Source of the DNA: Albula goreensis
Taxonomy: Eukaryota; Chordata; Actinopteri; Albuliformes; Albulidae
Assembly (NCBI GenBank): GCA_022829145.1
Contig: CM040746.1
Span: 10,166,184-10,230,183, forward strand
Length of the DNA: 64,000 bases
Reading direction: 5' to 3'
In this document: piece by piece, positions 17,431 to 62,760 of the stretch
Position numbering within the stretch: position 1 is the stretch's first letter
Layout: every line of letters begins with the position of its first letter
Notes under the pieces: model-generated
What the model was told of the DNA's origin: nothing
The model's database searches: none
Seen by the model: only the letters and a program-made list of their open reading frames with translations
Translations under genes and position numbers: made by a program

Positions 17431-17434
17431 AGGC

Positions 17435-40920: not shown

Positions 40921-40923
40921 GCT

Positions 40924-41046
40924 TCATTTACATTTACATTTCAGCATTTAGCAGACATTCTTGTACAGCGAGACTTGCACAGATTTTTTATACTCTATCC
41001 ATTCATCCAGCTGGATATTTACTGAAGTGATTCAACGTGATACCAG
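40924..41046 (-). mobile_element. Truncated V-SINE-like SINE (tail and core only)
   Basis: ACATTTACATTTCAGCATTT, AGCAGACATTCTTGTACAGC, CCATTCATCCAGCTGGATAT and TTACTGAAGTGATTCAAC; the element stops before the tRNA-like head. Confidence 0.75.
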
Positions 41047-41664: not shown

Positions 41665-41676
41665 GCCATCTAGTGG
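41665..41676 (-). promoter_or_regulatory. CTCF-like core site
   Basis: The minus strand reads CCACTAGATGGC, a full match to CCASYAGRKGGC. A weaker partial match in the other orientation lies at about 42030-42047. Confidence 0.45.
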
Positions 41677-41742
41677 CCATTTATATTATTTTAAAACACC
41701 ATTTGCTTTCTGTGACTGTTGGGGGTTTGTGCAGAAATTTGC

Positions 41743-41790
41743 CTGTGTGTACGTGTGTGTATGTGTGTGTGTGGGTGTGTGTTTGTGTGG
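41743..41790 (+). repeat. (TG)n microsatellite
   Basis: TGTGTG with single-base interruptions; about 60 bases to the right of a CTCF-like site. Confidence 0.85.
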
Positions 41791-41799
41791 TTTCAAAAT

Positions 41800-44700
41800 A
41801 AGTGATTTAAAGGAAAATAAACATTTAAATGAAAAATAAAAATGCAACGGCTACATTCTTACACACAAGTATGACTGAGGGCCAAGAATGAGTTGTGTAT
41901 TGAACTGTGTGAGCTTTTATTATTAGTAATGGTAGTGGTATTTATGGGAATCATCACTGCAAAACACAGGCTTTTATAAAATTATAAAGAATTAAAAAGT
42001 GTAAGACTGCATGCTAAGAGTATACTGTACCTGTAGGGGGAGCTACTCATCCAGTCATGAACTGAAGCACAGCAGCTGCTGTTTATCCTGGTTGCCTGGT
42101 TACAGTTCAGCTGCCTTCTGCAGAAAGGTCACCCCTCTTCAGTCTGAATGTCAGCAAAGCTCACACAGCCTAATCACAATTCTTATCCTGTGATGTTGAA
42201 ATTATGTGGGAAATCATAAGAAGCGAATTTCCATCACATTTATTCAGAACGAACAGATGAATTCTGATTAGAAAGAACAGCTGAATGATAAAAAAGACTT
42301 GGAGGATTTTTTTTTGCTCCAGGCTGCAAAAAGTGGAAAGGATGTGCTAAGATGTGTCAGTAGTTTGTGATTTTTTTCTATGACATGGTTTGTCAGCCAA
42401 AGTAGAATCATACACTTGCTTGATCTGACTTAATTTCATAACTAGACTTTTGATAAAATTCCTGAGGGGCATAGACCCTATAATTATATGATATAAGAGG
42501 TTGACAAATGTTTAAAGTAAACAAGACCAAAATTAACTGTTTTTCAGTGACAGGATAACCACGGATCATTCCAACATAAAGGAAGTTCAGAAATGATGAG
42601 CAATTTGATTGGCCTTTGCCTTCCACTTCATTAATTGGCTTGGTAACGGGTCGTTGTTTGACGAACACGTAATGCTTTTTGACATTGAATGGATTCTGTG
42701 ATTTTGTGATTGTCTTTATTACTAGCTTGGACTCATCTAGACTCACTTTCTGCATCTTTCAGGAGGGAGAGATTGCTCTGACTTGTCAAATATAACTTAC
42801 TGACATGACATAGTGATCAAGACGACATGGTTCACTTTTTCAGGCCCTTTCACTGGTATAGCAGTTTCTTTGACTTTTGATGGAGAAAAGTGCTGGGATT
42901 CAAACTAGAGTTAACTATAATTAGAGACTTGATTTGGGCCTGACCTTGGTGATTTGGATATTGACAACAGCTTTGGGGAATTGGTACTTGACCCAGACCT
43001 GAACAAACAAACCATAAAAAACATCTCCTTGTTACTGAGCGCGTACATATTTTCTGTATTTCCTGAAATCTTTTTTTAATATCTTGTCTTGCCAATTTCG
43101 AAACATTTGGGACAGAAAGGATACAGTGAGCAGCTGTTGAGCAGAATCTGGGCCTTGGCGGCACAAGGACAAAACAGCATGCAAACTTGTTTTACATTGA
43201 GTTAAAAACCCAAACTTTCAAACCAATGCGACTGTCAGAGTTGTCAGCCGTTAGAATAACAGTATGGAAAACATGAATAGAAGAAGTTTTGTTTAAAAAG
43301 CGGGGCACTTCACCAGCCTAAATGCATCACAGCCGCAGAGGTGAAGCGTAGTCTGATGCTGGATAAAGGGGACCCCCATTTATTCTCTTCGGTTGTTTGC
43401 GCTCCATAACGCCCCAATTTACAGTGCTCAGGGTCAGCCAAGCGTCTGGAGCCGATGCCTCTCATGGCTGCAGGGACTTCTCGCTGGATTGCTCGTGAGC
43501 CTCGCTAACGTCAGTGTTTGCGCAGTCTTTCCTGGAGAAGCCCCCCCCGCACTCTCCAGCTCAGAGGTTCTGTCAAAGGCATTCCGCCATGGACCTTTCC
43601 TTTTTTCTTTTTCTGTTTTTTTTTCATTTCTCTCTCTCTCTGTTTTCTGTCTTTGCGCCAGACCTTGCCACTGTGATCAAAGGTGGGTATTTTTTTCTTT
43701 TTGACACCCGTTACCGAGTCTGTATCAAGCATGGTTGTAATTGGCCGCTCGCACTTTCATAAATATTTTTAAGATTACGCTGGCTTTGATCAAATGTCAT
43801 TATTTCCAGTCCCCCCACTCCTCCCCTCCCACCCCACCCGTCTTCATCTCAGTTCTTCATCCTAGTCCTTTCCTCCTGGTTTGTCATCCGTCATCTCAGC
43901 TGTGAGCAGAATGGATGGAATTTTTGGAACAGTTTTGGGAGTGTTTGATTTATTCTGGTCTTGGTCCCGTGGGCTGAGTGTCCATCTGGTTAGGAGACAG
44001 AAAAAAACACAGGCACACACGGAAAACACACCCCACACCACTGTGACTGTTCCATTGCTGGCCCTGGCTGTGCTTTGATAAAAAGTTGATGACCTATCAG
44101 GAGGTGGTCTGTTGTTGTGGGTGGGGATTGCCTATGATTATCAAACTGTTCATGTTTGAATCCTCAGGTGGGGCAATATGCCAATATGCTCATCCTTGTT
44201 TGTAAATGTGCAGAACATGAAAGTAATGAAAGCAATTCTTCAAATGTCATTTATATTGGCTTTCCTATCCTTTTTAATAGGGTCTGGGGTCTCCAGGACC
44301 CGGAACAGAAAGTGAGGGTAAAGTCCCCCTAGTTGAAGGGGGCACACGGCAGGCCAAACTTGATCCTCATAAAACAGTGGCAGAGAGTGGTGATGTAGGA
44401 TTTCTCTGAACTATTTAGAAAAATGGGCTCATTTGCTCGGCAATTTTACAAACAGGGCAGCTACATATCATCTGTTATATATGATATAATGTATGTCATG
44501 GAATGTTACAAATTGTTTTTGGAGGAAGTCAAAAAAACTGACTTTTATGGCCAGAATACTCAATTTACTGAAATCAATTTTTGGACTTGGATGATTGTCT
44601 GCTACCATTTCCAGTGAACAGGATGTGATATATAACTGTTGGGTTCAAGAGTCACGTAAAAGTTATCTAAAAGGAAGTAAAGACAACATACTATAAGTAG

Positions 44701-45750
44701 GTAACAGAAAGCATAATTCCTGAAAAATGAAGGTGTTGCTGTAGGTGAGGCATACCTGAGGGGTTGGTGGCATTGGTGTAATCACTGAGGATAAGTGTGA
44801 GGCTTCTGGGTTTGTCTTTCCTCTAGCCATGTATCAGTGTGGTTCCAAAGACAGGAATGGTGTCTGAACCCCAATAGAGCAGGAACTCTGCTGGGCATGT
44901 GCAGCAATCAGCTGTTTAAACAGAATGATGAGTGGCCATTTCGTAACCTCTGCAGGCATATTTGTGCCTCACACCTGCGCAGACAGTTGTCCAGTGAAAG
45001 GGAATCTGTGCAAACATGTGGTTAATTCAGTGCATATCCACAGTCCTGAGTTTTGTTCAGTACTCTGAGGTAAAACCATAAAATCATGACTCACACCATC
45101 AAAGGCAGGATGGGAACCTCATATTTACAGCACAGTGCAGCGTCACACATGTGTAGAACACAGTAATTCAACATTTCCAACATTTGTTGAGTATAAAGAA
45201 TTCATAGAAAGCTTCCATAATTTTGCATGACTGTTAAAATGTATTCACAATGTGACAAATGTGACTTGTATAATGCATCATAATTCAGTATTCAAATACT
45301 CTTCTTGTTTGCTGAAAAGCAGATTTTGGCAGCATGAGGATGTTTTATAATGCTGATAATATTATTTCCCTTGCAATATACAAAAGATAGACAAGTTACA
45401 AAAAAGTGTGAAAAATAAAGTTCTCTGTTGCACTCAGGGCATACATAATTCAGCTTTATAAACACGCACCTTACATTTGACCAATTACCATTCCTGCATG
45501 TCATTTTTAATACTTATAAAATCATTTTATGGGATTGTGAAAGTCATTTCCAGCTGCTGTTGAATTATGAATTTGAAAATAATGGATGCAGAGACATAAT
45601 GATTCTGAGTATGGCCCTAGGTGCTCATTAAAAAATGTGTAAAGAAGGGAACAGAAATGGCCAAAATACATTAGCTGCCTTTTAACTGTCTGCATATCAG
45701 CGGAAGGAACAGAGTGTGCCCAGGTAGTTTTCACTGGGCTAGAGTCCTAT
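41800..45750. other. Intergenic, no gene seen
   Basis: Unique AT-rich DNA. A T/C-rich segment at 43560-43640 generates hydrophobic ORFs. It also contains the U1 repeat at 44.38 kb. Confidence 0.65.
44378..44690 (+). repeat. Unnamed interspersed repeat U1, copy 3
   Basis: AGTGGTGATGTAGGATTTC, GTATGTCATGGAATGTTAC, GGAGGAAGTCAAAAAAACTG, CTTTTATGGCCAGAATACTC. The 64-codon ORF inside shows no recognisable domain. Confidence 0.5.
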
Positions 45751-45751
45751 C

Positions 45752-46085
45752 GCCTGTGGAGGGGCCCTTTTCTACATGCAGGGAGTTCTATAATGTCTTC
45801 AGGGGCCATCTAACCCATACCTTCCACAAGGGCCCATGTTAAGTACAGGAACTTAGAGTGTTGAGGGCCTTTTTTTTCTTAACTTGCATAGTGGCCCCTG
45901 TCTGGTACAAGGGACTATAAAGTAAGTGAAGGGGACCCATTTTGTAGGCCCCTTTTTCCCCATGGCTAAGAAAGGGGCCCATGTCTGTCTTCTAAGACAT
46001 ATGCAGCCAGTGAAGAGACCCCTTTCCCCATCGCCTACACAGGGGCCCTTGAGTGCATGAAGTCCCTTCTCTGTAGCCAGGGGGG
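45752..46085. repeat. Degenerate GGGCCC-rich tandem repeat
   Basis: GGGGCCC or GGGCC(A/T) recurs roughly every 30-60 bases (about 45762, 45802, 45831, 45875, 45893, 45950, 45974, 46042). The two best-matching units share CCCCTTT..CCCCAT, then a short spacer, then GGGGCCC (45950-45985 and 46018-46050). It looks like an old, diverged minisatellite. No ORF or known element explains it. Confidence 0.55.
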
Positions 46086-46334
46086 GCGGTCACGGGCGTT
46101 TATGTGCTTATTCATGACTGGACCCACAGCGGCCAGGGCTCCGTTTAAAGTGGGTAGAGCCGCCGCAGCTTAAAAGGGCTTACACGGCTCCCCCGCTGCG
46201 AGGACACGGAGAGCAGCAGCAGCCCGTGGCCCTGTGAGGCCGGCTCTTTCGCTGCACTGCTCCACCCCCCTGCTTCAGCACGCATAATGAGGCAATCTGC
46301 TCTCAATGGGGTCTTACAGCCCCGTCCTGCACTG

Positions 46335-46675
46335 AGTAATGTACTGGAGTGTGTGTGTGCGCACACGCATACGTTAATGTGTACGTATATGTGGTCAGAC
46401 TCACATACATGCAAAGACAAATACACAAACAGACATTTATAAACACACACACAGCCATGCGCACACATACAAAGCCATAAACACACATGTACAGACACAT
46501 ACACAAAACACTTACACACATTCAATGATATATATATACACACACACACACACACACTTATTAACACATGGACAAACACTCACACACATTCAAAGACACA
46601 CACATACACTCATAAACTCACACATGCACATACATACACTTTCCAGTTCTCTCTTACACTCACACTCACACACAC
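46335..46675 (+). repeat. (CA)n-rich microsatellite belt
   Basis: Imperfect CACACA/CATACA runs over about 340 bases, with a pure segment near 46538-46557. A TG-rich belt follows at 46810-47000. Confidence 0.92.
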
Positions 46676-46809
46676 ATTTCCATGAACCCTGCAGCTGAGA
46701 TAATAGATTCAGCTTCAAAGGTGAACACTGTTGACATGTTCCCTTCCAGCCTGTGAGAGGTGGGACACAACCAGACTGCCTGGAAACTTGCCACCATTCC
46801 CTACTACTA

Positions 46810-47000
46810 AGTGTGTGTTCATATTTAACAGTGTGTGTGAGCCTGTGTGTAAAAGCATGTAGCTGCGTGGGTGTTTGTGTCAGTGCATGTGCATGAATAT
46901 TCTAAGCCATTATGTGTGTTTTTGTGAATGTGTGTGCGTGACTGTGTGTGTGCACATATTTTAAGTCAGTGTGCAGTGTGTGTGTGTGTGTGTGTGTTTT
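46810..47000 (+). repeat. TG-rich microsatellite belt
   Basis: Imperfect GTGTGT runs, purest at about 46976-46997. Confidence 0.9.
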
Positions 47001-48260
47001 GGCCTTGCATAGTTCCAGAGAATTTTTTTTTCTAATAATCAAATTTCACAGGAGAACGAAAACAGACTTTCATAACAGATGATAATTCAAAAATATCAAA
47101 GTAATGTTTAATGATTCCATTGAATTGAATTGACCAAAAAAAAAATCCATTCTCCTCAAGATGTGTGTTTATACAGGGAGGGTCCAGAACATTCTTTGTC
47201 CAGGGGAAATCCATCTGTGTGAAGACACAGAGCTAAAGCTAATATGACTAATATGAGTCCCTGGACACAGAGGCTGTGTTTCTGTCCAGCTCAAAGACTG
47301 ATTCCAGATCAGCAGGATAAGGCAGGAATGCCCTGGCTCATTAGACTGATGTCAACAGTCCATATTGGCACGGGAGAGAGAGGGATGGGAGGGGAGAAAA
47401 AGGGTCATAGATATTGGGAGAGAGAGTAAAGGAGATTGTCTATATCAATCATTCTAGCAACGCAGGATTATTTTATAAGACATGTATTTTTTACTATGAT
47501 ATAATTAGTATAGACAACCTGTAATCATTAAGGTCTGTTTGAGCTGTCAGGGAATCACTATGGTAATAAAGCCAGTGGGGACCCTTGGGTCCATTCATAT
47601 TTCCTATTTGAGAGAAAGAGAGCAGGAGAGATAAAGGCTTCTCATGGCCCTTTTTTAAAATGCTGAGGGAGAAACAAAAAATACCTCATAGTTCCCATGA
47701 AGTCACTCAAAAGCAAAAATAAAAAGACAAGGAGAGAGGGAGGGAGAGGAACAGAGAATGTCTCCTATCAGCCAGCAGAGAGGAAAAAACTGAAGTGGAC
47801 TGAATTTTTTTTCTGAACAACAGTCTGGATTTTGTTGGGGAGGGAATGGGCAGTGCAGAAATCTCACTCTTATACTATTATATCATTGCATTGGTTATCT
47901 GTAAGTCATACTGTGTACACTGCTACTGCTGTAATGTGTATACTGCTATTTTTACTACTATCACTACAATCACCAACCAATTAAGACTATTGATGCTTTC
48001 TCTACTGCAAGCAACTTGAACAAACAACTGGCTTAAATTTTGCGACATAAAGTACCAAAGCTATCATTTAATATACTAGAGTCTACTGATGAGGAAATTA
48101 TATTTCACCAGAAATGGGCGGTGCTATCATATGGTGTAAGTGACTCAATGATTCTGGTTTTTGGGTTTTGATTGGCTCAAACAAGTAAAAAATGGTTGGC
48201 AGCTGAGTGAAGGTCCATCCTTACGGGGCTCATGAGACCTCATTTAAAACTCCATCAATA

Positions 48261-48385
48261 CCAGGGCCTGTATTCATTAAGCATCTCAGACTGGAAATAC
48301 TGATCTAAGATCAGTTTGGCCTTATGGCTCATAATGGATAAGAATGAGATACAGATGGCAAATCTGATCAAGGATCAGCTGTCAC
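48261..48385. mobile_element. Second MITE-like repeat family, copy 1
   Basis: Reads CAGGGCCTGTATTCATTAAG, CATCTCAGACTGGAAATACT, GATCTAAGATCAGTTTGGCC, then AATCTGATCAAGGATCAGCT. The GATCTAAGATCAG and TGATCAAGGATCAG blocks are partly inverted. This is a layout common in fish short foldback repeats. Confidence 0.6.
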
Positions 48386-49079
48386 TAATTTAAGTTACTC
48401 CGTTACAGAAAACACGCCATGAACTTTAATCCAGCAATGTTCAAGAGATCAATAATTAACAGGATTATGTAGCCAAAGCATTTTAAAGCACAAAATCATG
48501 ACTTGAAGCCTGTGAAATAGTTTCCACATATGTATTAATCTCAATCAGATTTATTGTAGGATTGTGAAAAATGTTTGTTTTCCATAAGACAAAGCCATAA
48601 ATGTGCTATGAGATACGATTAAGCAGCACAGATTTTGTGCAGATTACTTCACAGATTTCGCAGTGCTCATCGGAACATAAAGGGAAATGATTGAACTTAA
48701 AAGGTTATGTTTCTACCATGTCATAAACAATTCAATACAACAGCCAAAAGCCAGTCTTATCTCAATGGAGTGGCTTTTGTCCGGTTTGTGTGTTTGCATG
48801 TTCTTGACCCAAATGACTCCCGGAAAGTTGTTTTCTTTTGATTGTCGATCTGCGAGTTCAAGGACACAAAAATGCTATAAATCCCCAGAAGGGTCGTTTT
48901 GTCCTGCTGTAGACTTGTCAGCTGAGGGAATAAGCTGTATTTCATGGTTACTTATCAGCAAACATAAGATCGAGTATGGTGCAAAGCCAACACAAAAATG
49001 ACTTTCAAATGGATACTTTTGTGCCTGACTGAAAACTGAACATCCTTCCAGATTATGTAAGGGTTGAGACAGAGTGTGA

Positions 49080-49081
<2 letters not shown>

Positions 49082-49122
<41 letters not shown>

Positions 49123-49142
49123 TGTGTGTGTGTGTGTGTGAG

Positions 49143-49180
<38 letters not shown>
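49082..49180 (+). repeat. Long (TG)n microsatellite
   Basis: About 100 bases of TG with a few GAGTG interruptions; the purest and longest dinucleotide array in the window. Confidence 0.97.
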
Positions 49181-49184
<4 letters not shown>

Positions 49185-50511
49185 TCTTATGTGCAGTGAT
49201 TCACTTGCTTTCACTTTTTTGCCCTTCGTTAAGTTAGAATCTTTATGACAAACAAACTTCATATTTCCACAAAACAGTAAAAGATGTAATCTTGAATTAG
49301 CGAATATCAACCCAGTGGAAAATATCCTGTTCCTGAAGTTGAATGTGTCTATTACCTAAGCAGCTGAATAATGTGTTTACTAAATTTGACTTCAGAAAGG
49401 GACTTTTAACAATGAAAGTTAAACCAGAGCTTTCAATGGAAAAAATGCAGTCTGCCTTTTTAAACTGTTCTGCCTATATGGAGTGAAATGTGGAGTCACC
49501 GTACATATGTCAATGACAGAGACAAAGCGAGCTGCAGCGCCGTCTGAACATTATGCACTTCCTGTACACAGCTGAAGTGACATCGGTGTAAATATGACAG
49601 ACTTGCAGGTGTAAAGACTATATTAACTACGTGTAGCACTGGGGTGCAGGGAATGAAAATGTCACTTCACCGTCACAGACTGTTCTCATTAAACCATTGA
49701 CATTCAAACATTAGATGAGATTTAGCCAGAGGAGATAAAATTCAGTTTCACTTTATACCGACTTTGTGATGTTATTTCATTTTAGTATTAAACTAGTTTT
49801 TTTTTTTAAGGCAGGTGTACAATTTCATTTAAATTAATAAAAGATACAATGCCTTGTAAAATCAAGAACCTATTTCTAGAACAACGGTGGGTCTCTTCTT
49901 ACTTAAACAAGAATTATACACATGTTACAACCTGTATGAACTCAAACAATAAGCGAATGGGGTTACTGCAGTTGTAAGTGTACTAGCGCTTGTTTTCCAG
50001 CGGGTGTCACTGTAATGCAGCCTAGGCCATTATGAGAGCGGACAATATGAAGTAACATACAGTAGCCTATATGGAGCTGAGGCCATGTGTGTCTGTGTGT
50101 ATCAACGAATGAGGTAAATGAAATAAATTATATATTCGTAATCTAAAACACTTTTTAAAGACTTTTGTAATGTTGTGAACATTTTATTCACATTCATTCT
50201 CATTCACATGTTCTCTCAAAATGTTAAAGTGTTACATTTTACACAAGATGTAGCCTATATGAGATGGGGAAGCCGTGCACAGACATCCTCCACCTTTGGA
50301 ACAGTGACGTGATTGTGTATCTTACCGTACGTATAAGTGACCTGCCACTGTAAGCATGTGTTGAGGATCAAGTGATGAACAGAAGGCGACATCTGGAGAG
50401 AGCGCTACCGATTTTATTCCCTGCCCCCCCAAAAAAAAAAGTTGCAACATTATACAAGACCTTCCCTTACCACTGTTCCTATAAAAGCATTGTTCTATCA
50501 AACATTGTGCA

Positions 50512-50680
50512 CTGTAGTGTAATGTAGTGGCTTATATCAGAGTTTGCTAGTTTGAGTCCCAGATGAGACGCTGTCATCGTACCCCATTGTAGCTGAATGG
50601 ATTTGTAGTATATGAAAATCTAAGTTGGGGAAATCGCTCTGTATTACAGTGTCTACTAAACACCTATGTATGTTAAATAA
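50512..50680 (+). mobile_element. V-SINE-like SINE, sense orientation, diverged
   Basis: The head reads TAGTGTAATGTAGTGGCTTA then TAGTTTGAGTCCCAG (B-box-like); the core is CATTGTAGCTGAATGGAT; the tail is AAATCGCTCTGTATTACAG and GTCTACTAAACACC. It may belong to a different subfamily from the copies at 32-35 kb. Confidence 0.5.
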
Positions 50681-52381
50681 ACCCCGTCGGCGTATTAATA
50701 TTGGCTGGTCATGCCAAACCAATGTATCCGTAAACATTTTTCCTGCCATGCTGTGTGAAAGCACCTGCATTCTATGGGAGTAAATTCTGATGGGAAAATA
50801 AATGTTATCAGGCTACTTGAAATGTTTCCGTAACCGTGCTGCCATTGCCGTTCATTCTATGTCTCCACATGAGAAAACATCAAAGTTGATTGAAAGAGTT
50901 TCAGAAGAGAAACGGATCAAAAACATGACGGTCATTCAAAGGAAAAAAGCCTACCTTTATCACATTGATGTTTCTTCTTCTTCGCTGATTACTTGTAAAC
51001 CCACCCGTATGGGTTTACCTCGGTGAATACCATGTATTCTGTGTTGTTTTCCCTTTATTTTTATTTTATTGTTTTTTATTTATTATTATTATCATTTTAC
51101 AATGATGTGCTTTAGCATTATTTATTAATGTTTAAACGAAAACATTGCTATTTTCTCCAGTCAGACCAAAACTCTTCACGATTTTTGAGATATGGCCTAT
51201 TTTGAGACATATATTTTTGATTATATTTATCATTTAATCAAATCATATCTAGCTTATATGACGGTGAATAGATCTCTGTTTTTGATTATCCAAAGATTAT
51301 CCAACATTGAACGACAATTTATGGCCTAACTCTGATATGTGAAGGTTGAGTAAAACCTCACGGATATTAATATTCTTTATCACTACAGCAACGACTCTGG
51401 CATATCACTTTTACATCAGTTTTAATCCGACGGTAATTATTTTATGTTGAAAAAAAAATTGTTATGCAATTTTGAGCCTATTGGATGAAATCGAAAGATT
51501 ATATTGCGCAGAATCTGTTATTGCTGAGATTAAATTAGTGATCGTGCTTTGAGTGAAGCGAAGTATGAGTATCTGTACTTTTTTAAAGTGTTGAATTTTT
51601 AAAAAGTCGCTTTTATCTATTATCCTCTACAAAGTTGCGTTAGAACCAAGATGTAGAAAAAAATATCCCCCTAAATAGGCTACTACTTCCGCCAGGTTTT
51701 TGTGAAAACTCAGCCTAATGTCCAGGGTTTCGTTTATGAGTGGATTCAAACGATATGAAATATCTCTATATATCGATCTGTATAAAGGAAGTTAGGTCTT
51801 CATTATATAGGATACACTGTATCGTGATAATGTTAAGGCTATATCAAACCATATCTATGTTCTGAAATTAAATTAAATTCAGCTATTAGAAAATTTGCCA
51901 CACATACATGATGGCGGTTGCTAGGTGATTATCGTTAATCGTTGCTGATGCTGTGTGTATTTAATCATAGTTTCCTTATCAGTAAATAGGGACACTAAAG
52001 ATCACCTGTGCAGCAGCGTGATATAGCCTATTGTTTAAGTGGATACAGTATAATAATATTGCGATTCCTCTTTAGTTTCTGAGCTTTACAAATGATGTGG
52101 TATCTTAAATCACTACTGTTGTCTTGCCCATAATTATTTTTTACATATTCCATATGTTTTAGTTAAGAGGAAAGAAAACTAGGTTATGGTCGCTATTTAA
52201 ATAGTCTACCAGATGCCATACCATTCGCGTAACATTTGCATTACCCACAGCCATTCTCCAACATATCCTTCAACAGAATTTCATTTATATTTCGCATTTT
52301 TCCTTATCCTGTCAAATTTTGTCAAGCTTCAGCTGGATGAGGCGAGGAAGCAGTCCAGCGAGGGAAGCACGAGAGCTATCC

Positions 52382-52408
52382 TTCAGCACCATTAAACTGG
52401 ACAGCGCC
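52382..52408 (+). promoter_or_regulatory. Split (expanded-spacing) RE1/NRSE-like REST binding site
   Basis: The two half-sites of the REST/NRSF element are both perfect: TTCAGCACC at 52382-52390 and GGACAGCGCC at 52399-52408. They are separated by 8 bases instead of the canonical 2, which adds 6 bp. REST is known to bind expanded sites whose half-sites are moved apart by about half a helical turn or more, and this spacing falls in that class. The site lies 1.5 kb upstream of the start codon of a gene encoding a neuronal channel subunit, a typical REST target setting. Binding is inferred. Confidence 0.6.
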
Positions 52409-52409
52409 T

Positions 52410-53159
52410 GCCAAGAATCTCACGCGCCGGGTGATGGCGAATGAACCAAATTGTTTGAAATGGAAAGGCAGATACTCCCACGCGCAAACATACAGTGTTC
52501 CCCTGATAGATGACAGTATGCAAATTCTGTGTGACTGCGGGATCCATCAATCCACAGCTAAGGCGCAGTGAATTTGAACACCTATCGGTTTCCTATTTGT
52601 TTATGTTATGGTGCGTGAAACCAAGTACCTTGTGTGTAATTACCTTTGGATTTGTGACAGTGAATGTTTCTTTAGTGTGGAAGTGTAGCGTGAGATGGAT
52701 ATCAGGAGCGCTTTGTGCAGCTGGAAAATGCTGTTTATCATATTATTTGAATGAATACGCCAGAAAAACGTGTCTGTTAGTCACGATTCATGTGCACCAA
52801 AGCCGGGCACGGTGTTGAGTCAGGTTTTACGACTGTACATATCGTAGAGTCACAAATGCATTTTCACTTTGTGTGTCCTGTTTGAAATAAGGATGTTGCT
52901 ATAAAACGTGCCATATAGACGCTTTCCCTGTACGGTGCTAGACTGTGCCATTACCAAAACCGACAACTTGAATAGGATTACTTTACAGACCTGTCATTCG
53001 TCATAGAGTTAATTACATGAAATAGCATATGCGCAATACCTGAAACATTAATTCCACTCAGAACGGTTAAGCGGTTCACGCTAAACCTTCCATTAAGTCG
53101 GCATACACCGAACGAGGAAAATAAATACTACGGAAGAGCTAGATAAATAAGTTCTGTGA
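52410..53159. other. Upstream flank between the split RE1 and the nalf2 leader
   Basis: Repeat-free. The 102-codon + ORF (52510-52818) has no recognisable domain. It could be promoter or leader sequence, but nothing specific can be assigned. Confidence 0.4.
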
Positions 53160-53919
53160 TTGTAATCTTCAAAATAACGTTATGTGTTTAATTTTTAAAT
53201 GTGCGTTTTCTCATTTTTTTTTGAAGAAAATCTGGAGCATGGAACAAACAGAGCGGTACTCGGCAAAAAGATGAATGAATCGGGAGGCGGGGTATGAATG
53301 AAGCTGCCGTGAATGGGGGAAGCGAAAGGGGGAACAGAGGGAGCACGCACGCCACCACCCCCCTTACACCGCCCCCCTCCCACCACCACCACCACATCCA
53401 CCAACCCCCCCGCCCCCTTCAGTTTAATCAATTTCTCAAGGTGGTCTCTGCAAAGCCGAAGATGGCGACAGACTACAAGGGGCCGAGGGACGGGTGAATC
53501 GGGACGATGAGGAACACGTATATCCTTTTGCACCATAAACGCAAGAAAAAACAATAAGAGAGAGAGAAAAAAAACATTCGTTCAAGGATGACAGCGGTAA
53601 GATTAAATCTTAGAGAATCTTGTGCGTTTCCCGAAAGGTTCAACAGGGCGTTAAGCAGCCTGTGTGCTATGTTGCAGCATGTCGAAACTAGCGGCTTGTA
53701 AAGACTATTTGTCGGGATATACGTTTTCTTCGCCAATGGATGGTCCGAAAAATTAGACGCAGAGGTGGGAAGGGAAGCGGTTTGATATCTTAATTTCAGC
53801 CCAGAGGAAATCACTAGCCAACACCATGCTGCTAAGAAGGTAGATGACATTGTTTGTGGAGAAAATTGGGAGAGGAGGTTAAAAAACAGCCGGGGATCAC
53901 TTTAGTCTCCCCCTAAAAT
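53160..53919 (+). promoter_or_regulatory. Putative promoter and 5' leader of nalf2, with several upstream ORFs
   Basis: CpG and C/G content rise from about 53240 up to the coding exon, as expected for a CpG-type vertebrate promoter; no convincing TATA box was found and the transcription start cannot be fixed. Upstream ATGs include 53271-53297 (8 codons), whose stop overlaps the next ATG in an ATGA arrangement (53294-53497, 67 codons); 53826-53843 (5 codons, good CACCATG context); and 53844-53882 (12 codons). All end before or out of frame with the main ATG at 53920. A CCACC-rich purine/pyrimidine-biased stretch lies at 53345-53415. A possible donor (GCG|GTAAGA) near 53594 leaves open a spliced leader. 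Confidence 0.5.
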
Positions 53920-54648
53920 ATGATCAGGGGTGTTTGGATGTGTCGAAGGGAAGACGATGCCGTGCTGAAAATCTACTGTGCACCCAAACAAAACGACAAA
54001 CCTTGCGCCGACTCCGAGAGGGCACAGAAATGGCGAATGTCTTTGGCATCCCTTTTATTTTTCACAGTTCTGCTCTCTGACCACCTCTGGCTGTGTGCCG
54101 GAGTTGAGCTGCAGTCCGAGGACAGGGGCTTTCGCGAATCCCAGAGCAACGCGACCGTCGGAGACCGCCTGACACCGACGGAGGGGGAGTGTGGTGTTTT
54201 TCTAAGCAATTCGACCAAATTTGTCGCTCCAAGTCCTCAGTGTACCGCCGTCCAAACTCACCGAAATCTCGAGTTAGCCTGCGCCACACTGCGTTTGCAG
54301 AACACCGACGTCGGGTCATCGTTTTCAACACCATCGACGTTATCGTCGCAATCTTTATTGTCTTATTTTAGGAATTTCAGTCTTTCCTTTTGTGATTCCT
54401 ACACCGTTTCCGACCTGCTTCGGGGGATGTCGAACCCGGACGGGTTGAACTGCAGTCTTCGGAACATGATGTGGGATTTGGGTCGCGGGGGTGCCGAAGC
54501 CGATGACGAGGACGTGTGCAGCGGCTGCATTCAGGCGTACACGAGGCTGGACCAACATGCTCAGGAAAAATACGAGGAGTTTGATTTCCTCTTTCTCAAG
54601 TATTTATCGGGGGATTATTCAGTTAGATCACACACCGAAGACTGTAAG
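53920..54648 (+). CDS. nalf2: NALF2 (FAM155B)-like NALCN channel auxiliary subunit, first coding exon (partial)
   Basis: Encodes residues 1-243 of a NALF/FAM155 protein. In this family the protein is a membrane glycoprotein whose extracellular cysteine-rich domain sits on the NALCN sodium-leak channel in neurons. Seen here: a short N-terminal stretch with the family motif DKPCADSERAQKW (about residues 27-39), a hydrophobic segment at 41-60 (SLASLLFFTVLL), a variable linker, then the start of the Cys-rich domain (NFSLSFCDSYTV at 152-163; AYTRLDQHAQEKYEEFD at 206-222). Sequons lie at N77, N97, N152 and N177. The start is supported by A at -3 and an in-frame TAA at 53914-53916. The exon ends AAG|GTAAGA in phase 0 after Asp-Cys-Lys, where the family's coding exon 1 is expected to end; reading on would stop at 54715-54717. 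DKPCADSERAQ, LWLCAG and RLDxHAQEKY resemble NALF2 more than NALF1. The linker is short and lacks the poly-Gln of mammalian NALF1. Family assignment is firm; the paralogue is likely. Confidence 0.88.
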
Positions 54649-54852
54649 GTAAGAGGCTGCTACTTGTTGGGTACTTTAGCAGTGTGGTCAGTTTGTGGGG
54701 GGTACTTTACCTTTTGATGAACTGTCTCCCCACAATTACACTCACACCTTCACTCAGAAGTCTAAGTGCTAGACTCAGTCAAACCCTTTTAATCTCTTTA
54801 GGATTATATGAAATTCAACCAGCACTTGAAAGTACAGCACCCTGTTCTTTGT

Positions 54853-55012
54853 CCATGTTACATTTTAATGGAGACAAATAAGCATGTCCTTTGGAATGTG
54901 TTATTTTCATCAGTAAATAAATTAACATATGCCCTTAAAGAGACTAAAGTCTGTTTTGGTTGAATTATATGCACTGTAAAAGAGACCAAGTGCATGTGAT
55001 TGAATCTCTCCC
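54853..55012 (+). repeat. Unnamed interspersed repeat U2, copy 2
   Basis: TGTTACATTTTAATGGAGAC, CATGTCCTTTGGAATGTGTT, AACATATGCCCTTAAAGAGA, AGAGACCAAGTGCATGTGAT. Located 200 bp into intron 1. Confidence 0.55.
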
Positions 55013-55189
55013 GAAGTCTTAGTTTGCATTCTGCAGTTTATCAGCTGTTGTATTAATTTCAAAATTGTACTTGAAATGCTGCAGCACTGCGTGACTAACT
55101 GAAGCTTTTAAAACATTGGGGCTTAGATCCCAATCTACACACTTAGAATCACACATGGCATATAGCAATTCAGTCAAAATAGACTACAC

Positions 55190-55310
55190 AGTATACGTGT
55201 CATTCCAGAACTAAATAGCACATACACTTAAAATGATTGAAGAATGTATTGATTGAGACGTATATGTAGTTAAAGAGACAAAATGAATTTGATTTGGTCC
55301 TGGACTGGGC
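55190..55310 (+). repeat. Unnamed interspersed repeat U2, copy 3 (diverged)
   Basis: ATAGCACATACACTTAAAAT, GAAGAATGTATTGATTGAG and AAAGAGACAAAATGAATTTG follow the same order as copies 1 and 2, with more changes. Confidence 0.4.
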
Positions 55311-55609
55311 CTTTTAGAGACTTCAGCTAAGAGAGGAATTGCTTTTTTCTGCCAGCATATGTCCATTACTTTTAATATCACACCATGGGGACATTTCCGG
55401 TCTTTGACTACCAAACTGCACAGAACAGTGTCCTCCCTGTTGGAAATAAGTGGTATGATTTATGATTTTTTTTTGTTGTTTCTCTCTTCAGTTGGCCTAC
55501 TGCCAGTCTGTGTATTAAATTCTTACAGATTACTGCCATTGAAGTGTGGCTTTGCTGGGAATGGGGTGTGTCATTAAGTCACATGTTCTCTCTCTCCAAG
55601 CTCAAGTCA

Positions 55610-56238
55610 GGAAGGCTGTGAGCAGCACTGGGCCAAATGAGTGTTCAGTGAATGAAACATGGAATGGGCACCTTCAACTTCTCTGTCAACATACACTTAT
55701 GTTTTATGAAAGTATGGGTGACATTCTTAGACTGAGCATGGATTGACAGGTTCAATGTATTCTCTCTCACTATAAATAGGATGTAAATCAAGTTTTATCA
55801 AAGAGGTACCCGGCATAAAGAGCATGGAATTGAAATAACAAATGAATCAAGATTATTTGTGAAGATAATCAGACTCAGTCTTACATTTCAGGTAATGTTG
55901 GAAAGGACTCACTGGTCCTTTATTTGGAAGGCTGTGAGCAGCACTGGGCCAAATGAGTGTTCAGTGAATGAAACATGGAATGGGCACCTTCAACTTCTCT
56001 GTCAACATACACTTATGTTTTATGAAAGTATGGGTGACATTCTTAGACTGAGCATGGATTGACAGGTTCAATGTATTCTCTCTCACTATAAATAGGATGT
56101 AAATCAAGTTTTATCAAAGAGGTACCCGGCATAAAGAGCATGGAATTGAAATAACAAATGAATCAAGATTATTTGTGAAGATAATCAGACTCAGTCTTAC
56201 ATTTCAGGTAATGTTGGAAAGGACTCACTGGTCCTTTA
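55610..56238 (+). repeat. Near-perfect tandem duplication, period 316 bp, two copies
   Basis: Copy 1 is 55610-55925 and copy 2 is 55926-56238. By reading, the two copies are identical over the compared length, including a 43-codon open stretch present in both. The junction is GGTCCTTTATTTG|GAAGG. The lack of divergence contrasts with all the older repeats nearby, so this is either a very recent duplication or an assembly artefact. It lies inside intron 1 and the translated stretch matches no family I recognise. Confidence 0.95.
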
Positions 56239-56265
56239 ATTCACGTACATTTCACAGACTAATAT

Positions 56266-56306
56266 ATATTGATTGATTGATATACTGATTGATCGATCAA
56301 ACGATC
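56266..56306. repeat. GATT/GATC short repeat
   Basis: TTGATTGATTGATATACTG followed by GATTGATCGATCAAACGATC; includes the palindrome TTGATCGATCAA (one base off). Immediately right of the 316-bp duplication. Confidence 0.75.
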
Positions 56307-56460
56307 AATGTTACTTGCCCCAGTGTGAGGGAGTCTCTGCTCTTGAATTTGCAGATTCCACCTCTCGAGCTGATGGTATTTGGTGGTGCATTCTCACCCA
56401 CCATCCCTTAGACCCAAGACCCTTTAACACAATTGTTTTGCAGGGTTTCTGTCCACAGTG

Positions 56461-56671
56461 GTGGTGTCAGCTTCCAGCCCTTGAGGACAGCTGCATCTGG
56501 TAGTTATTGGTATTTTTCTGCCACAAGGCTAATTGGCTAATTGAATCGGCTAAAGGGTGCTGCACACACAATACACGCACACAAGCACCTCCTTTCCATA
56601 GCGTAAAGTAGCTGCTGATGGAAACACCACCAGACACTGCGGTCCTTCAGGGCTGGAACCCATTGCCACCC
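56461..56671. mobile_element. MITE of the same family, diverged
   Basis: The arms GTGGTGTCAGCTTCCAGCCC and, inverted, GGGTGGCAATGGGTTCCAGC bracket an interior with GCTAATTGGCTAATTGAATC. GACACTGCGGTCCTTCAGGG near the right end matches the copy at 62572. Confidence 0.6.
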
Positions 56672-57944
56672 ACTCTGCGGTGACACCTCTGTTACCGTGG
56701 CGGGTCTTCACAGCATATCTCACTGTCATTTAAGGGCTTAGCTGTGACTAGCCTAGAGTTAAAAGGGCTGGCACAGCGACGTTCACAGCTAAGGGTCACA
56801 TTAGGTCTTTCATAGGAGTGGGCCCTTTTCCAGCCCTCTAGGGAAGGAGAGGAGCCAAAGGGACTAGCAGTCCTCCCTCATTTTGTTTCAGTCAATGCTC
56901 TTCACCTCATGCCACCTTTTCCCCCCTTCCTGTCCTTGGCCTGTCACCAAATGCTGATGACATCACCCTTTATGACTTCTGTGGCAGTCCGATTATTGTG
57001 TCCAAAAAGAGCTGGCTCTGGCAGGACAGTGCCATAACTCGTATGTGCTCTTGTAGTCTATGTTTTTTGTGTTGTGCTCTGGTCAAGGCTCATGGAAAAA
57101 CATTTTATGCAGGATGAAATAAAATCAAAATCAGTTTTAAAAATCCTTGAATTTTTCAGGGAAAATCGATAAAAAACTGGAGAAACTGAAAACCACTAAA
57201 CCTTAGGTATAGTAGTGTGGGAGGCATTGGAATATCTTAGCTTGTTATGGTCTTTCTTCAGGCTATGCCTATAGGGCTGGCGCCTTGCTGTAGTTTTTCA
57301 AGGCCTTCACTTATGATGATGACGATGATAGCGTTCTTTGTTTTTGACACACAATGAAGGAATCCTGTCCCAAGTTCAACACCATAGCATCCCTCTGAAT
57401 AGAATAAACCTTCATGCATGTGTATTATAGATAACATTTTTATCATTGAAAGCACAGTCTTGGAACCCAGAATGTCAGATCTCTAGAGATGTCAAGATGC
57501 TCTTGGCTTGCCATCTGGGAGCAGCACTCACTTTAGCTGTGATCTCCAACACCAGGGACGTGGCCGTTTTTGACATTGGTTAGCTCTTCAGAGAGTGGCT
57601 CATAGAGGCATGATGTATTTCACACACACCTCCCTCTCTATAGTTTACATTTGAACTGTGGCCTCCTTATAAGGCCTGTCATCGTGGAGTCGATGCGAGC
57701 GGTTGGAAAATATCGGTTTGGTCCAGAAAAGTGGGTGGGCTCAGTGCTCAGAGCTGCACTGCTGCCTCCATCCTTAAAGCAGAAATATGTAAGCATGGCA
57801 CACAAACCTATGGAACTGACACCCCACATGTATTATTTTGAAATGACAAACCCATAAGCAGTACTCAGCTGTCTGTATAGAATGTGTATTCAGTCCTTCT
57901 CTGACCTCCCGTGCTGCTCTTGGGAGCTCAGAGGCTCAAACGAG

Positions 57945-58095
57945 ACGCATCTGAGAGACGGGAGAAACAAACGAGACGTGCTCAGCAAGCCCTGCCTACA
58001 GCGACAGCCACCGGAGCTACGGTTCATCGGGCCGCGCAGTAATTATCCAACACGTCGCGCGCGCTCACTCCTCCTCACTAACGAGCATCCCGGAT
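57945..58095. promoter_or_regulatory. CpG-rich patch in intron 1
   Basis: Contains ACGTCGCGCGCGCTC and many ACGAG motifs. It could be an intronic enhancer or alternative promoter; no exon is evident. Confidence 0.4.
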
Positions 58096-59141
58096 GGGCC
58101 AGCCTACGAGGAAAAAATGAAACAAACAGTTTGAGCAAAGGGAAGAAAAACTCTACGCAGTTTCCTCATTGGAGTGTATGCACAGCTAAGCATGCTTCAG
58201 GTAAATTATCTACAGATTCTTTAGACTCTCCAGATACTCTCTGTTCCCTCGTTCTGAATACTGTAAGTTGAAGCAGAAGCCACTTTCAGCTTGATGTGCA
58301 GTGGCACTGCCAGGAATCCTGGACCTAGTGAAAAGAAATGACACTGGCTCCTCTAGCCTATTAATGATATTGGTGAAGCTTTTAGGGGCTCCTGTTCCTG
58401 TTGTCCCCTTTACAATGCTTGTGTTACCAGGCTTTGAAGTATTCATAAAGGGCATGAACACATCCAGTACTAAGGGCCTTCTATGTTCTGCAATGCAGTA
58501 CACTACGATAAACTCCTCTTAATGGCTGTAATTCACAAAATCATTGTGGAAATTACATCAAATGACTGAGGGTAGTTAATTGATTAAGAGCAGACATTGG
58601 TATGAAATTCAGACCAAGATATGGCCATCCTAACCCACCTTTGTTTTAGAATGCTCCGGTATGTGGGCGTCAAGTCCAGTGACTCTGTTAGCATGCTGGT
58701 ATCTTGACAGGCTGCATCGTGGGAAGTCTGCCCAAATCTGCCATATTTATACAGGTAGCATACGTTCTTTGATACGTCTCGTAAAGCAAGCAATTTGGCT
58801 GCGTACACTGCTTTCCTGGTGCCTCAATGGAGGTAATATTTCAGGACATAAGTGGGCAATCTCATTGCTGGAGAGCCGGTGTGCATGCATGTTTTTGTTT
58901 CTATGAGTTACTGGCTCAATTACCTAATTAGCTGCATACACTAATGCCGATTCATTGGTAGATTAGGCCATGGAAGGATTTGGCTTTCATTTATGAGTTT
59001 ATCAAGATATTGAACTGAAGTGTCAAATTGCATAGATGATTGGACTAATTTTATAATGAGCCTGAAACCCAGAAACAGATTGGGCCCTCTTTGTCCACCC
59101 TTAATGTAGGATCAGAGGGACCAGCATGCATCCATCTGTCA

Positions 59142-59180
59142 GGCTTATAACTTATAACTCTGACTTATAACTTATAAGCC
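59142..59180. repeat. Direct and near-palindromic CTTATAA repeat
   Basis: CTTATAACTTATAA occurs twice, separated by 6 bases; the outer GGCTTATAA and TTATAAGCC make the block a near-perfect palindrome. Confidence 0.8.
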
Positions 59181-59512
59181 TTGACAACAATGAAACACAG
59201 TTACCAATGTTACCGTGTGGGTTCTGTGCAGGGACAGAAATTAAGCCCAATGTAGGCAGAATTTACATTTGGTTTGTTAAAAAACCAAATTTCACTTTAA
59301 TAAATTGGAACAGATTTCGGAAGATTGATGAAACAGTTGACACCTGTATTGTCCATTTTTACGTTGAGATTAGTGTTTTCACACTCCTAACCACCCTTGA
59401 CATGCACCCACACATTTATGTTAGTGATGAAGGTAGTTCACACTTTGTCACATCTAAGTCTTTCAGTCCAGAGAATTATTCAGGACTTTTGGTTGAAGGA
59501 GTTTATCTCTAG

Positions 59513-59694
59513 CAGTGGTCCTCATTTCTGGCCCTGGAGAGCCACAGTGTTTGCTGGTTTTTGCTGTTGCTCAGCAATTAATGACTAATTAAAACCGTTG
59601 ATTACAAAGTTAACGGACTCATCTGGTTTGTTGAGTCCGTTGTTGTTGTGAAATCTTACTGTGGCACACCAGGGCCTGGAATGAGGACCTCTGG
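59513..59694. mobile_element. hAT-like MITE, complete copy (182 bp)
   Basis: Ends are inverted repeats of about 25 bases: CAGTGGTCCTCATTTCTGG at the left and, inverted, CAGAGGTCCTCATTCCAGG at the right, both followed by CCCTGG. CAG...CTG termini with a third-position-variable GGT are typical of nonautonomous hAT elements. The 8-base flanks are similar but not identical. No transposase is encoded. Confidence 0.75.
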
Positions 59695-60631
59695 TCTAGA
59701 GCATCAGGGTGGCAGCTTGCCAGGAGCAAGCTCATATTTACTTGCTCACACCTTGCCACATTCTGGCCAGTGGGTGTGGGGAAACGTACCAGTGACTATT
59801 TGGTTGCTGGTCTGATTTGCGAACCTCAAGGCCACCACTGCACCATCATGGACCCTGGTTCTGACACTGCCAAAGCATTGGGTTCTCTGGAGGTTGCAGC
59901 GCAGCGCTAAACAGAGAGAAAACTCCCTCTCAGTTATCATGGACCAAAACCATATGCTCTTTTCTCTGAGTTCATTTATGGCTGTCTGTGCTTGGTTTGC
60001 ATTTTTGGGCTGCATTGACAAGTGATTCCCCATTTGGGGAATTAACAGAGGATATCTCATCTAATCTAATTTCATCTCATGAGGTTTAGGCTATCTAACA
60101 TCTTTTTGCTGATGTATTTGATTGGGGGATGTATTTTAGCGACTGATTCTGCTGCGTGACTTTTTTTTTCCATTCGGATAGTTTTGGATCAGTTTGGAAA
60201 TATTGTTGTGGAGTGCACAAAGACTCGGGCATCATATCCCCTGCTGTGAACTCCGTGCCAGCAGACGCTTCCACTGAAGAATATATCAAGGGCATTTAAT
60301 GCTTACCGATTTTCTCTTCCTTTCACATAGAGGGCCTTGCCTGTTTCTTGGCCTGAATAATAAACAGTTTCACAAACCGAAGTGATTTCACTTCTTCACT
60401 GTTGGTTAAAGGAACAAGAAACAGACAAGACTACTGCTGCGTTTTTCTTTCCAAAGACCTAGCATTTTATGATGTTGGTTCAAATGTTTCCTCTCTAGCT
60501 AGTAAAATGGGTCTTCGTTGATTCATCAAAATAGCGGTGTGAAGCTCAGTGCTTCAGAGAACTGTGTGTATGCCGGCTTTTCCACCAGTCTCATGTTTTA
60601 ATTGGTTGATTAAGTAATTCATCTTGGGGAG

Positions 60632-60712
60632 TTACAGAGGTTGCTGGTTTTTGCTGTTGCTCAGAACTTAATTGATCATCTAAAGCAGTTGATCTCACCA
60701 TTCACTGACCTT
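60632..60712. mobile_element. MITE interior fragment
   Basis: TTGCTGGTTTTTGCTGTTGC and TCAGAACTTAATTGATCATC match the interior of the complete copy at 59513; terminal repeats are absent. Confidence 0.6.
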
Positions 60713-61889
60713 GCCGGGGGTATACCGTTTGATAAATATTATGAAGACAGATAGGCTTTTCTCTTAATAAAACTAGCTTTAAATCAATTAATGTGTTCAA
60801 AATATAGAATAACAGTTGTCAGTCAGTGAACTAAAACTGCTTCTTAAATATTTTCACTTTGGCATCTTACCAAAGTTATCCAGCTAACTCGGTAAGACAG
60901 ATTCGTGGAATACCACCCAGTTTATGGGGTACAGTTTGGTCACTGATTTTCCGGTGAAAATAAAAATCAGCATAAAAAACACACCAGAAGCCCCTATGGG
61001 TGTGTAGAAGCATGGTTTTGAAACCCTCATCAATGTGCTTTGGCAGACAGGAACACCTGCCCCACTCTACTCTTTGTCATGGCTGGGTCCCGCCCTCAGG
61101 TCCCCACCGTTGAGTCGTCCCTCAATTATAACGCTTGCTCTGTCTAGCCACTGTGGCAGTTTAGAGAGAAGTTAAAAGTGAGCTGTTTTTCACTGAATAG
61201 GAATAATACAGTCCTTGGAGACAAGGAGGACTGCAGTAAGGAAATAATTCCCAAAGGCAATGACCCATAGCTGAGTGCTACTTAAGAATATGTTTTTCCC
61301 TTCAGTGAAATTTTAATTGGGCTTTGTGTTCAGAGAGGACTTTTTCACACTGTACCTATGTGTTTTGTTTGTGTGTGCATATGTGTGTGCATGTGTACTT
61401 GTGTATGTGCATGCAAGCATTTGAATGTGTAAGTGTATCCTGAAACACCAGCTTTCTGAATAGCAGATGGGACCATAATTGAAATCAATATTTTGTTTTT
61501 GTTAAACTGACAGTCTGTTTGCAATTGTGTTTGTATTTGAAAAGCGTACATTGCACTATGAAAGCAGATGCAGACATCGAGATGTCGCGCATTCAGTGGA
61601 ATTCGAGGGAATTGCTCGCATTTGAAAGACTTAAACGGTGTAGCGGTGCAGAACGAGCCCCGGAAGATGGATACACTCTCTCCCTCAGCATCCATCACTG
61701 TTATCATGTACACCTGTTTATCACAGAGGGGTTGCATTGCAAAACCTGTCTTGTTTTATGCAAATGGTTTCTTTTCCCAGTTACAAACTGTGCACAGTCC
61801 GTGTGGAGGCTGTCTTCCATGTTTAGATCAACTCAGAGAATGGGTGTGCCCAGAGGAGAGACCTGCACTGCTCAAACCTGAAATTCAGT

Positions 61890-62102
61890 TTTACATGAGG
61901 ACGTCAAATATATTCTATTGATTTTTTCCTATAAAAATTGTTTTCAGACATTTCACATGAGAAATTGCTTTTTTCACATGTGAGCTGAAATTTTCATGTG
62001 CGAAAACAAAAACTGTCACATGAGGCTAAATGTTTGCATTTAATACTACATGTAAAACCGACTTGTTCTTTGTTCATATCACCTTTTCACTTGTGAAATG
62101 TC
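61890..62102. repeat. Patch of repeated CACATG palindromes
   Basis: TTTCACATGAG, TTCACATGTGA, TTTCATGTGCG, GTCACATGAGG, TACATGTAAAA and TTCACTTGTGAAA occur within about 200 bases, many flanked by short A or T runs. It is probably a decayed tandem or foldback repeat; it also offers many E-box-like CANNTG cores. Confidence 0.6.
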
Positions 62103-62571
62103 CAAACAAACTGGCAAAAAATGTTTTCTTTTACTCTGCCAAGGGTAACTCAGTAGAAGTGGAATGGGACAGAATTCCTGAGAGATCAAAAGAGCTATCT
62201 GGCACCAAAAATATGCTGTCTCACCGACTCAGACCTTGGGCCAAAGTTCTCTGTCAGCTGTTCATTCAGGTAATCAGTCCTGGGTGCTGTGGTACTTTAA
62301 CCAATCAGGTGTACAGCTTACCTTTTTGCCTCTGTGTGGTCCTCATTGAAATAATGGGAGTTACACAGAGCTGACAAGGGTCATATTGGTTTGGCCTCCC
62401 ACCTCGGAAAAGGGCTATCTGAGGAGCCGCCATTAAATAGAATATAAGATGATTAAAATGAGGAAACCTTGCTTGTTGTATCGGGAGCCCTGGAAAACTG
62501 CAGTGGACAGGACGGTACATCCTCACGGTTTTCTGCTGGCTCCATCTGCTTCTTCTGTCCTGAATGAGGGT

Positions 62572-62760
62572 CAAACCCAAGCCCTGGAGGACCGGAGCCG
62601 GCAGGTTTCCACGGTCTTTCCTTTCAATCACCAGCCAATTTAAGCTTCAGAAACAAGGTGAGTGGACTCTTTAGCCAATCAATGCCTTAAATGAATCACT
62701 TAAGTGGTGAAACACAGCAGGAAACCAGCAGACACTGCGGTCCTCTGGGACTGAAGTTTG
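62572..62760. mobile_element. MITE of the same family
   Basis: The left arm runs CAAACCCAAGCCCTGGAGG then ACCGG and CAGGTTTCC; the right arm is its near inverse, GGAAACCAGCAG then GCGGTCCTCTGGG and CTGAAGTTTG. Its ends differ from the copy at 59513, so it may be a sister subfamily. Confidence 0.7.

What the first reader, a model, noticed from the sequence alone, without database searches (positions are those of the whole stretch)
52382..52408. Split-spaced REST (RE1/NRSE) element 1.5 kb upstream of a NALCN-complex gene
Both half-sites, TTCAGCACC and GGACAGCGCC, match exactly but lie 8 bases apart instead of 2. Two exact half-sites in the right order and orientation over 27 bases are unlikely by chance, and REST is known to bind expanded-gap sites. 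A direct REST link would give this sodium-leak channel subunit gene a neuron-restriction switch.
Basis: partly seen in the sequence, partly recalled or inferred. Interest (0 to 1): 0.7.

Follow-up and report, generated by a model that had tools for sequence, protein, structure and literature searches.

The report
Perfect wide-gap REST silencer site
Upstream of a gene for a sodium-leak-channel partner protein lies a perfect but wide-spaced match to the binding site of REST, a protein that keeps neuron genes off in other tissues; the site type is known, and its link to this gene is plausible but untested.

Summary
TTCAGCACC-ATTAAACT-GGACAGCGCC lies at 52382-52408 (+), both half-sites perfect, spacer 8 bp. 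Each exact half-site occurs once in the window, both strands counted. About 1e-7 to 1e-6 such exact gap-8 pairs are expected per window, so chance is unlikely. The literature strengthens the reading, because 8 bp is not just any expanded gap. Gaps of 7-9 bp (not 3-6) form the noncanonical REST/NRSF class in ChIP-nexus data, with zinc finger 6 modelled as bridging an 8-bp gap (PMC8096226). Among atypical spacers, only 8 and 9 bp silenced in a reporter assay (PMC9903721). The site sits in the broadest CpG-preserved domain of the window (51.0-54.75 kb, CpG o/e 0.94), which also holds the first coding exon of a FAM155/NALF gene (ATG 53920), probably NALF2. No canonical 2-bp-gap match has fewer than 5 mismatches. 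Not shown: conservation, REST occupancy, the transcription start, or regulation of NALF2; no vertebrate genome could be searched. Verdict: very probably a genuine noncanonical RE1/NRSE, a new member of a known kind, with a plausible but untested target gene.

The parts
52382..52390 (+). Left RE1 half-site TTCAGCACC (exact consensus)
   Evidence: the only exact copy in the window
52391..52398 (+). 8-bp spacer ATTAAACT (canonical RE1 has 2 bp)
   Evidence: spacer class per PMC9903721 and PMC8096226
52399..52408 (+). Right RE1 half-site GGACAGCGCC (exact consensus)
   Evidence: the only exact copy in the window
51001..54750 (.). CpG-preserved domain (o/e 0.94, against 0.35 in 1-51000 and 0.32 in 54751-64000) holding the site and exon 1. 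Boundaries approximate and chosen after looking at the profile; read as a likely unmethylated promoter domain (inferred)
53459..53467 (+). Single AAGATGGCG core (YY1-like; label recalled), a weak hint of the transcription start region, about 1.05 kb downstream of the site
   Evidence: exact string search, both strands, one hit in window; interpretation recalled
53920..54648 (+). First coding exon of a FAM155/NALF gene (probably NALF2), ending at CTGTAAG|GTAAGAG; the open frame itself runs on to 54717
   Evidence: the splice position is inferred from the end of homology and the GTAAG donor

Best explanation
52382-52408 is a noncanonical (expanded-gap) RE1/NRSE. REST would grip GGACAGCGCC with zinc fingers 3-5 and TTCAGCACC with fingers 7-8, with finger 6 lifted out of the groove to span the 8-bp gap. 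It would recruit its corepressors to the CpG-rich promoter domain of the adjacent NALF gene and so help keep this NALCN-complex subunit off outside neurons. Shown here: sequence, spacing, non-chance nature, CpG-domain context, gene family. Taken from published work on other sites: finger usage, and silencing at 8-9 bp spacers. Inferred: REST binding at this locus, NALF as the target, and repression as the effect.
For: Exact 19 of 19 consensus bases in correct order and orientation. Expected 1.1e-7 to 1.0e-6 per window at this gap, about 0.002-0.016 per Gb. Reporter work: of the noncanonical configurations only atypically spaced motifs silenced, and among spacer lengths only 8 and 9 bp (PMC9903721). 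ChIP-nexus gaps are 2 or 7-9 bp but not 3-6; gel shifts and molecular dynamics were done on an 8-bp-gap site (HS5-1), and REST knockdown raised PCDH-alpha 6 and 12 (PMC8096226). In zebrafish the same half-sites with a 2-bp spacer restrict transgenes to the nervous system in a Rest-dependent way (PMC3529185). The site lies in the same CpG-preserved domain as the NALF first exon. No 2-bp-gap match in the window has fewer than 5 mismatches. The paralogue FAM155A is listed as UP in REST-knockout HEK-293 cells (PMC12202048, table row seen; the row lists genes that also carry a mutation, here a 3'-UTR indel).
Against: No cross-species conservation or occupancy data could be obtained. The 8-9 bp class silences less strongly than the 2-bp class, and scrambling the spacer weakened it, so the spacer letters may matter. 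PMC2573930 words its result as 'expanded by 7-11 base pairs', which if read as added bases puts this +6 site just outside its favoured range. The transcription start is unknown. Only a small share of REST peaks use this class (5% altered spacing in PMC2573930; 3% in T cells, defined as 1-10 nt insertions, in PMC4055426). [quoted passage not shown] A 79-aa open frame runs through the site, though all six frames there are open for 35-79 codons and it has no match in PDB sequences or Pfam.
Confidence: 0.7

Rival explanations
1. REST binds the site, but its regulatory target is not NALF2: it acts on another gene in the region or is a bystander occupancy with little effect.
For: In PMC2573930 the vast majority of genes with a REST site were not derepressed by dominant-negative REST; the most up-regulated had sites very close to the start, often within 1 kb. 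The start of this gene is not mapped.
Against: The site shares a CpG-preserved domain with NALF exon 1. Nine of the 28 frames of at least 75 aa overlapping 38000-52400 were scanned with Pfam and gave no family; this is a weak scan that can miss genes, and two of the nine overlap the site itself.
Confidence: 0.15
2. A chance assembly of two half-site-like words with no REST function.
Against: Expected 1.1e-7 to 1.0e-6 per window for the exact pair at gap 8; across 31 gaps at most 3.2e-5, which leaves room for about a thousand alternative motifs. Permuted motifs reached 2 mismatches at best, in 2 of 1000 and 1 of 300 trials.
Confidence: 0.04
3. A former canonical RE1 broken by a 6-bp insertion and now decaying.
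For: Both halves are the full canonical consensus, including the ninth-position C that PMC8096226 finds barely conserved in the noncanonical class; relatives could not be checked.
Against: Both halves are intact and the gap falls in the working 7-9 bp class, so the element could still be a working, weaker silencer even if it arose this way.
Confidence: 0.07
4. The stretch is coding or part of a repeat, and the match reflects other constraint.
For: A frame reads through the site (79 aa, 52205-52444). The left half overlaps a 17-bp direct repeat at 82% identity with 52264-52280. 38 prokaryote matches to the pattern exist (whether they lie in genes was not checked).
Against: All six frames are open for 35-79 codons there; no PDB-sequence hit or Pfam hit; no second copy of the 600-bp flank in the window beyond 22- and 17-bp matches at E 0.38. 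Genome-wide repeats could not be checked.
Confidence: 0.04

Closest known systems
Noncanonical expanded-gap NRSE/RE1, e.g. the PCDH-alpha HS5-1 site with an 8-bp gap (PMC8096226)
   Different: HS5-1 is an enhancer site acting on a gene cluster; this one lies 1.5 kb upstream of a NALF start codon and has perfect consensus halves; binding here is untested
Canonical 21-bp RE1/NRSE (TTCAGCACCACGGACAGCGCC, as printed in PMC3529185)
   Same: Identical half-site letters
   Different: Spacer 8 instead of 2 bp
FAM155A (NALF1) response to REST loss (PMC12202048)
   Same: Paralogous NALCN-complex subunit gene, listed as UP in REST-knockout HEK-293 cells
   Different: No site or direct binding in the passages seen; the gene here looks closer to FAM155B in one of two blocks

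Membership tests
Canonical RE1/NRSE | Two half-sites separated by 2 bp | tested here: not met
   Spacer is 8 bp
Noncanonical expanded-gap RE1/NRSE | Left half-site match | tested here: met
   9 of 9 bases
Noncanonical expanded-gap RE1/NRSE | Right half-site match | tested here: met
   10 of 10 bases
Noncanonical expanded-gap RE1/NRSE | Left-then-right order, same orientation | tested here: met
   Both on + strand, left 5' of right
Noncanonical expanded-gap RE1/NRSE | Gap of 7-9 bp (8-9 bp for silencing) | tested here: met
   8 bp; ranges
Noncanonical expanded-gap RE1/NRSE | REST occupancy in cells | not testable with these tools
   No ChIP data for this species at hand
Noncanonical expanded-gap RE1/NRSE | Silencing activity of this sequence | not testable with these tools
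   Needs a reporter assay or site deletion
Noncanonical expanded-gap RE1/NRSE | Conservation at the orthologous position | not testable with these tools
   No vertebrate genome collection on hand; the genome search was unanswered five times
FAM155/NALF gene | Sequence homology to the FAM155A N-terminal region | tested here: met
   E 2.1e-45, two stretches, PDB 7cu3_B, and three further distinct FAM155A sequences; Pfam gave no family for this exon
FAM155/NALF gene | Cysteine-rich domain of the later part of the protein | tested here: inconclusive
   No credible match in the window with a recalled query; later exons probably lie beyond 64 kb
NALF2 (FAM155B) rather than NALF1 | Closer to FAM155B than to FAM155A | tested here: inconclusive
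   Second block favours B (score 276, 58/90, against 212, 45/85); first block is a tie in score (B 234, 45/68; A 235, 46/63) with A higher in identity; the B letters were recalled

The most novel reading that the evidence does not exclude
NALF2 is a direct REST target through a dedicated expanded-gap element, so that the supply of an accessory subunit, not only of NALCN itself, is what REST uses to confine sodium-leak current to neurons; the weaker 8-bp class would make this a graded rather than an all-or-none switch.
Probability: 0.3. Interest if true: 0.55.

Novelty: new member of a known kind. Interest (0 to 1): 0.4.

Why it matters
NALCN sets neuronal resting excitability, and my searches turned up little on how its accessory subunits are restricted to neurons. 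A perfect REST site with a spacing of the working class beside a NALF gene gives one precise 27-bp target to bind-test or delete, and would be a clean natural example of the rarer 8-bp-gap class, probably outside mammals.

Tried and rejected
Chance: rejected by the counts. Coding origin: a 79-aa frame through the site has no PDB-sequence or Pfam match, and all six frames are open there. Local repeat: no second copy of the flank in the window; within 51500-54000 only a weak 17-bp repeat (82%) overlaps the left half. Structured RNA: no Rfam match in the window at gathering thresholds. A second or canonical RE1: no other pair with fewer than 4 mismatches at any gap 0-30, and none with fewer than 5 at gap 2, where two have 5 and ten have 6; these are consensus mismatches, not matrix scores, so a weak site could be missed.

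Prior report: 0 papers in the held library hold both FAM155B and RE1-silencing; of the 4 that hold at least two of FAM155B, NALF2, TMEM28 and NRSF, none holds NRSF (listing seen); 1 holds NALCN and RE1-silencing, a Rett-syndrome genetics paper seen only in the listing; 10 hold FAM155B and the word 'rest', seen only in the listing except PMC4033012, where passages show the ordinary word. Wider searches printed only part of their lists (20 of 512; 15 of 332; 40 of 336); in the rows printed the only link seen was FAM155A in PMC12202048. Two other literature searches (and PMC2824720) gave nothing usable beyond noting that a variable NRSF motif exists. Supplementary tables of REST targets could not be read.

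The odds of the best explanation were lowered from 0.78 to 0.70 because it includes the target gene and the odds together had exceeded 1; two rivals moved by 0.01.

Full report
Observation. The reported element is present exactly as described: TTCAGCACC ATTAAACT GGACAGCGCC at 52382-52408 on the + strand. Both half-sites match the consensus that PMC3529185 prints for the canonical 21-bp NRSE (TTCAGCACCACGGACAGCGCC; passages seen), with 8 bp instead of 2 between them.

Chance. Each exact half-site occurs once in the 64-kb window, both strands counted, and both copies are here. Among left-right pairs at gaps 0-30 on both strands with at most 5 mismatches (left half at most 4) there are 34: this one with 0, 4 with 4 and 29 with 5; two of the four with 4 mismatches reuse this same right half. 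At gaps 2, 7, 8 and 9, counted exhaustively, the next best pairs have 5 mismatches. Order 0-3 Markov models, fitted to the window or to the 51.0-54.75 kb domain, predict 1.1e-7 to 1.0e-6 exact gap-8 pairs in 64 kb, 3.5e-6 to 3.2e-5 for any gap 0-30, and about 0.002-0.016 gap-8 pairs per Gb. Permuting the letters within half-sites, 0 of 1000 pairs (gaps 2, 7, 8, 9) and 0 of 300 pairs (gaps 0-30) came below 2 mismatches. In the prokaryote contig collection (257 billion bases by its description) the exact pattern hit 38 stretches, an empirical rate of about 0.15 per Gb in DNA where it can have no REST meaning and which differs from this window in composition.

Why 8 bp matters. Published work makes it specific. 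PMC8096226 (passages seen) reports ChIP-nexus gaps of 2 bp or 7-9 bp but not 3-6; gel shifts assign fingers 3-5 to the right half and 7-8 to the left half, and in molecular dynamics on a site with an 8-bp gap (HS5-1) finger 6 flips out and spans the gap. [quoted passage not shown] this site keeps it. [quoted passage not shown] It adds that this is weaker than a 2-bp gap and that scrambling the spacer raises expression. PMC2573930 (passages seen) found altered spacing in 5% of sites, 'expanded by 7-11 base pairs', a phrase that can be read as slightly longer than this gap. PMC4055426 (passages seen) counts noncanonical motifs (1-10 nt insertions) in 3% of T-cell peaks and finds lower expression of genes whose peaks hold canonical or noncanonical RE1 motifs.

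Gene. An open frame at 53920-54717 matches human FAM155A at E 2.1e-45 in two stretches, residues 1-74 and 118-244; homology stops at a GTAAG splice donor after 54648. Pfam has no family for this exon. Against recalled human FAM155B letters, the second block is closer to B (58/90, score 276) than to A (45/85, score 212); the first block is a tie in score (B 45/68, 234; A 46/63, 235) with A higher in identity. I therefore call it NALF2 as probable, not proven. No credible match to the cysteine-rich later part was found in the window. PMC12412391 (passages seen) places the FAM155A/FAM155B duplication in vertebrates.

Promoter domain. CpG observed/expected is 0.94 over 51001-54750 (154 CpGs), against 0.35 in 1-51000 and 0.32 in 54751-64000. 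I chose those limits after seeing the profile. Over the whole window it is the broadest and strongest such domain, not the only one: the best 2-kb window wholly outside it reaches 0.70 and the best 1-kb window 0.90, both in a smaller patch near 17.0-19 kb. The REST site and the NALF first exon both lie inside the main domain. Preserved CpG usually marks DNA unmethylated in the germ line (established knowledge), so this is best read as the regulatory domain of the gene. A lone AAGATGGCG (YY1-like; label recalled) at 53459 hints at a start about 1 kb downstream of the site, but the start is not mapped. [quoted passage not shown]

Rivals. A broken canonical site with a 6-bp insertion cannot be excluded without relatives, and the kept ninth-position C fits it, but it would still have a gap of the working class. 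A coding explanation is weak: all six frames are open for 35-79 codons around the site, and the 79-aa frame has no PDB-sequence match or Pfam match. A repeat origin found little support within the window, and the genome could not be searched. Another target gene is possible; nine of the 28 frames of at least 75 aa overlapping 38000-52400, two of them over the site itself, gave no Pfam family.

Novelty in print. 0 papers of the held library hold both FAM155B and RE1-silencing, and none of the 4 that hold two of FAM155B, NALF2, TMEM28 and NRSF holds NRSF. 1 paper holds NALCN and RE1-silencing, a Rett-syndrome genetics paper seen only in the listing. FAM155A is marked UP in a table row for REST-knockout HEK-293 cells (PMC12202048), a row that lists genes also carrying a mutation (here a 3'-UTR indel); this is indirect support through the paralogue. 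Most subscription papers, all supplements and REST ChIP tables were out of reach, so the link may already be tabulated somewhere.

Verdict. By sequence a genuine noncanonical RE1/NRSE; 0.70 that REST binds it and that it acts as a silencer of the NALF gene, taken together, with binding alone likelier. It is a new member of a known kind, not a new kind. Direct regulation of NALF2 is a good, cheap, untested hypothesis.

Noticed in passing
55610-56238: A 316-bp head-to-tail duplication (2.0 copies, 100% matches) in what is probably the first intron of the NALF gene: a very recent tandem duplication or an assembly artefact.
   Followed up: partly
5480-6545: A 27-bp minisatellite (33.1 copies at 94% matches, plus a 6.6-copy neighbour) with long open frames on both strands that give repetitive mock proteins.
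   Followed up: no
37776-38212: A compound tandem array with units of 45-64 bp.
   Followed up: no
51001-54750: A broad domain of preserved CpG that starts almost 3 kb before the start codon and falls off sharply after exon 1.
   Followed up: yes
17001-19000: A second, smaller patch of raised CpG (1-kb windows up to o/e 0.90), perhaps another promoter or regulatory element.
   Followed up: no
52205-52444: A 79-aa open frame runs through the REST site, reading FSTIKLDSA over it; no relatives found.
   Followed up: partly
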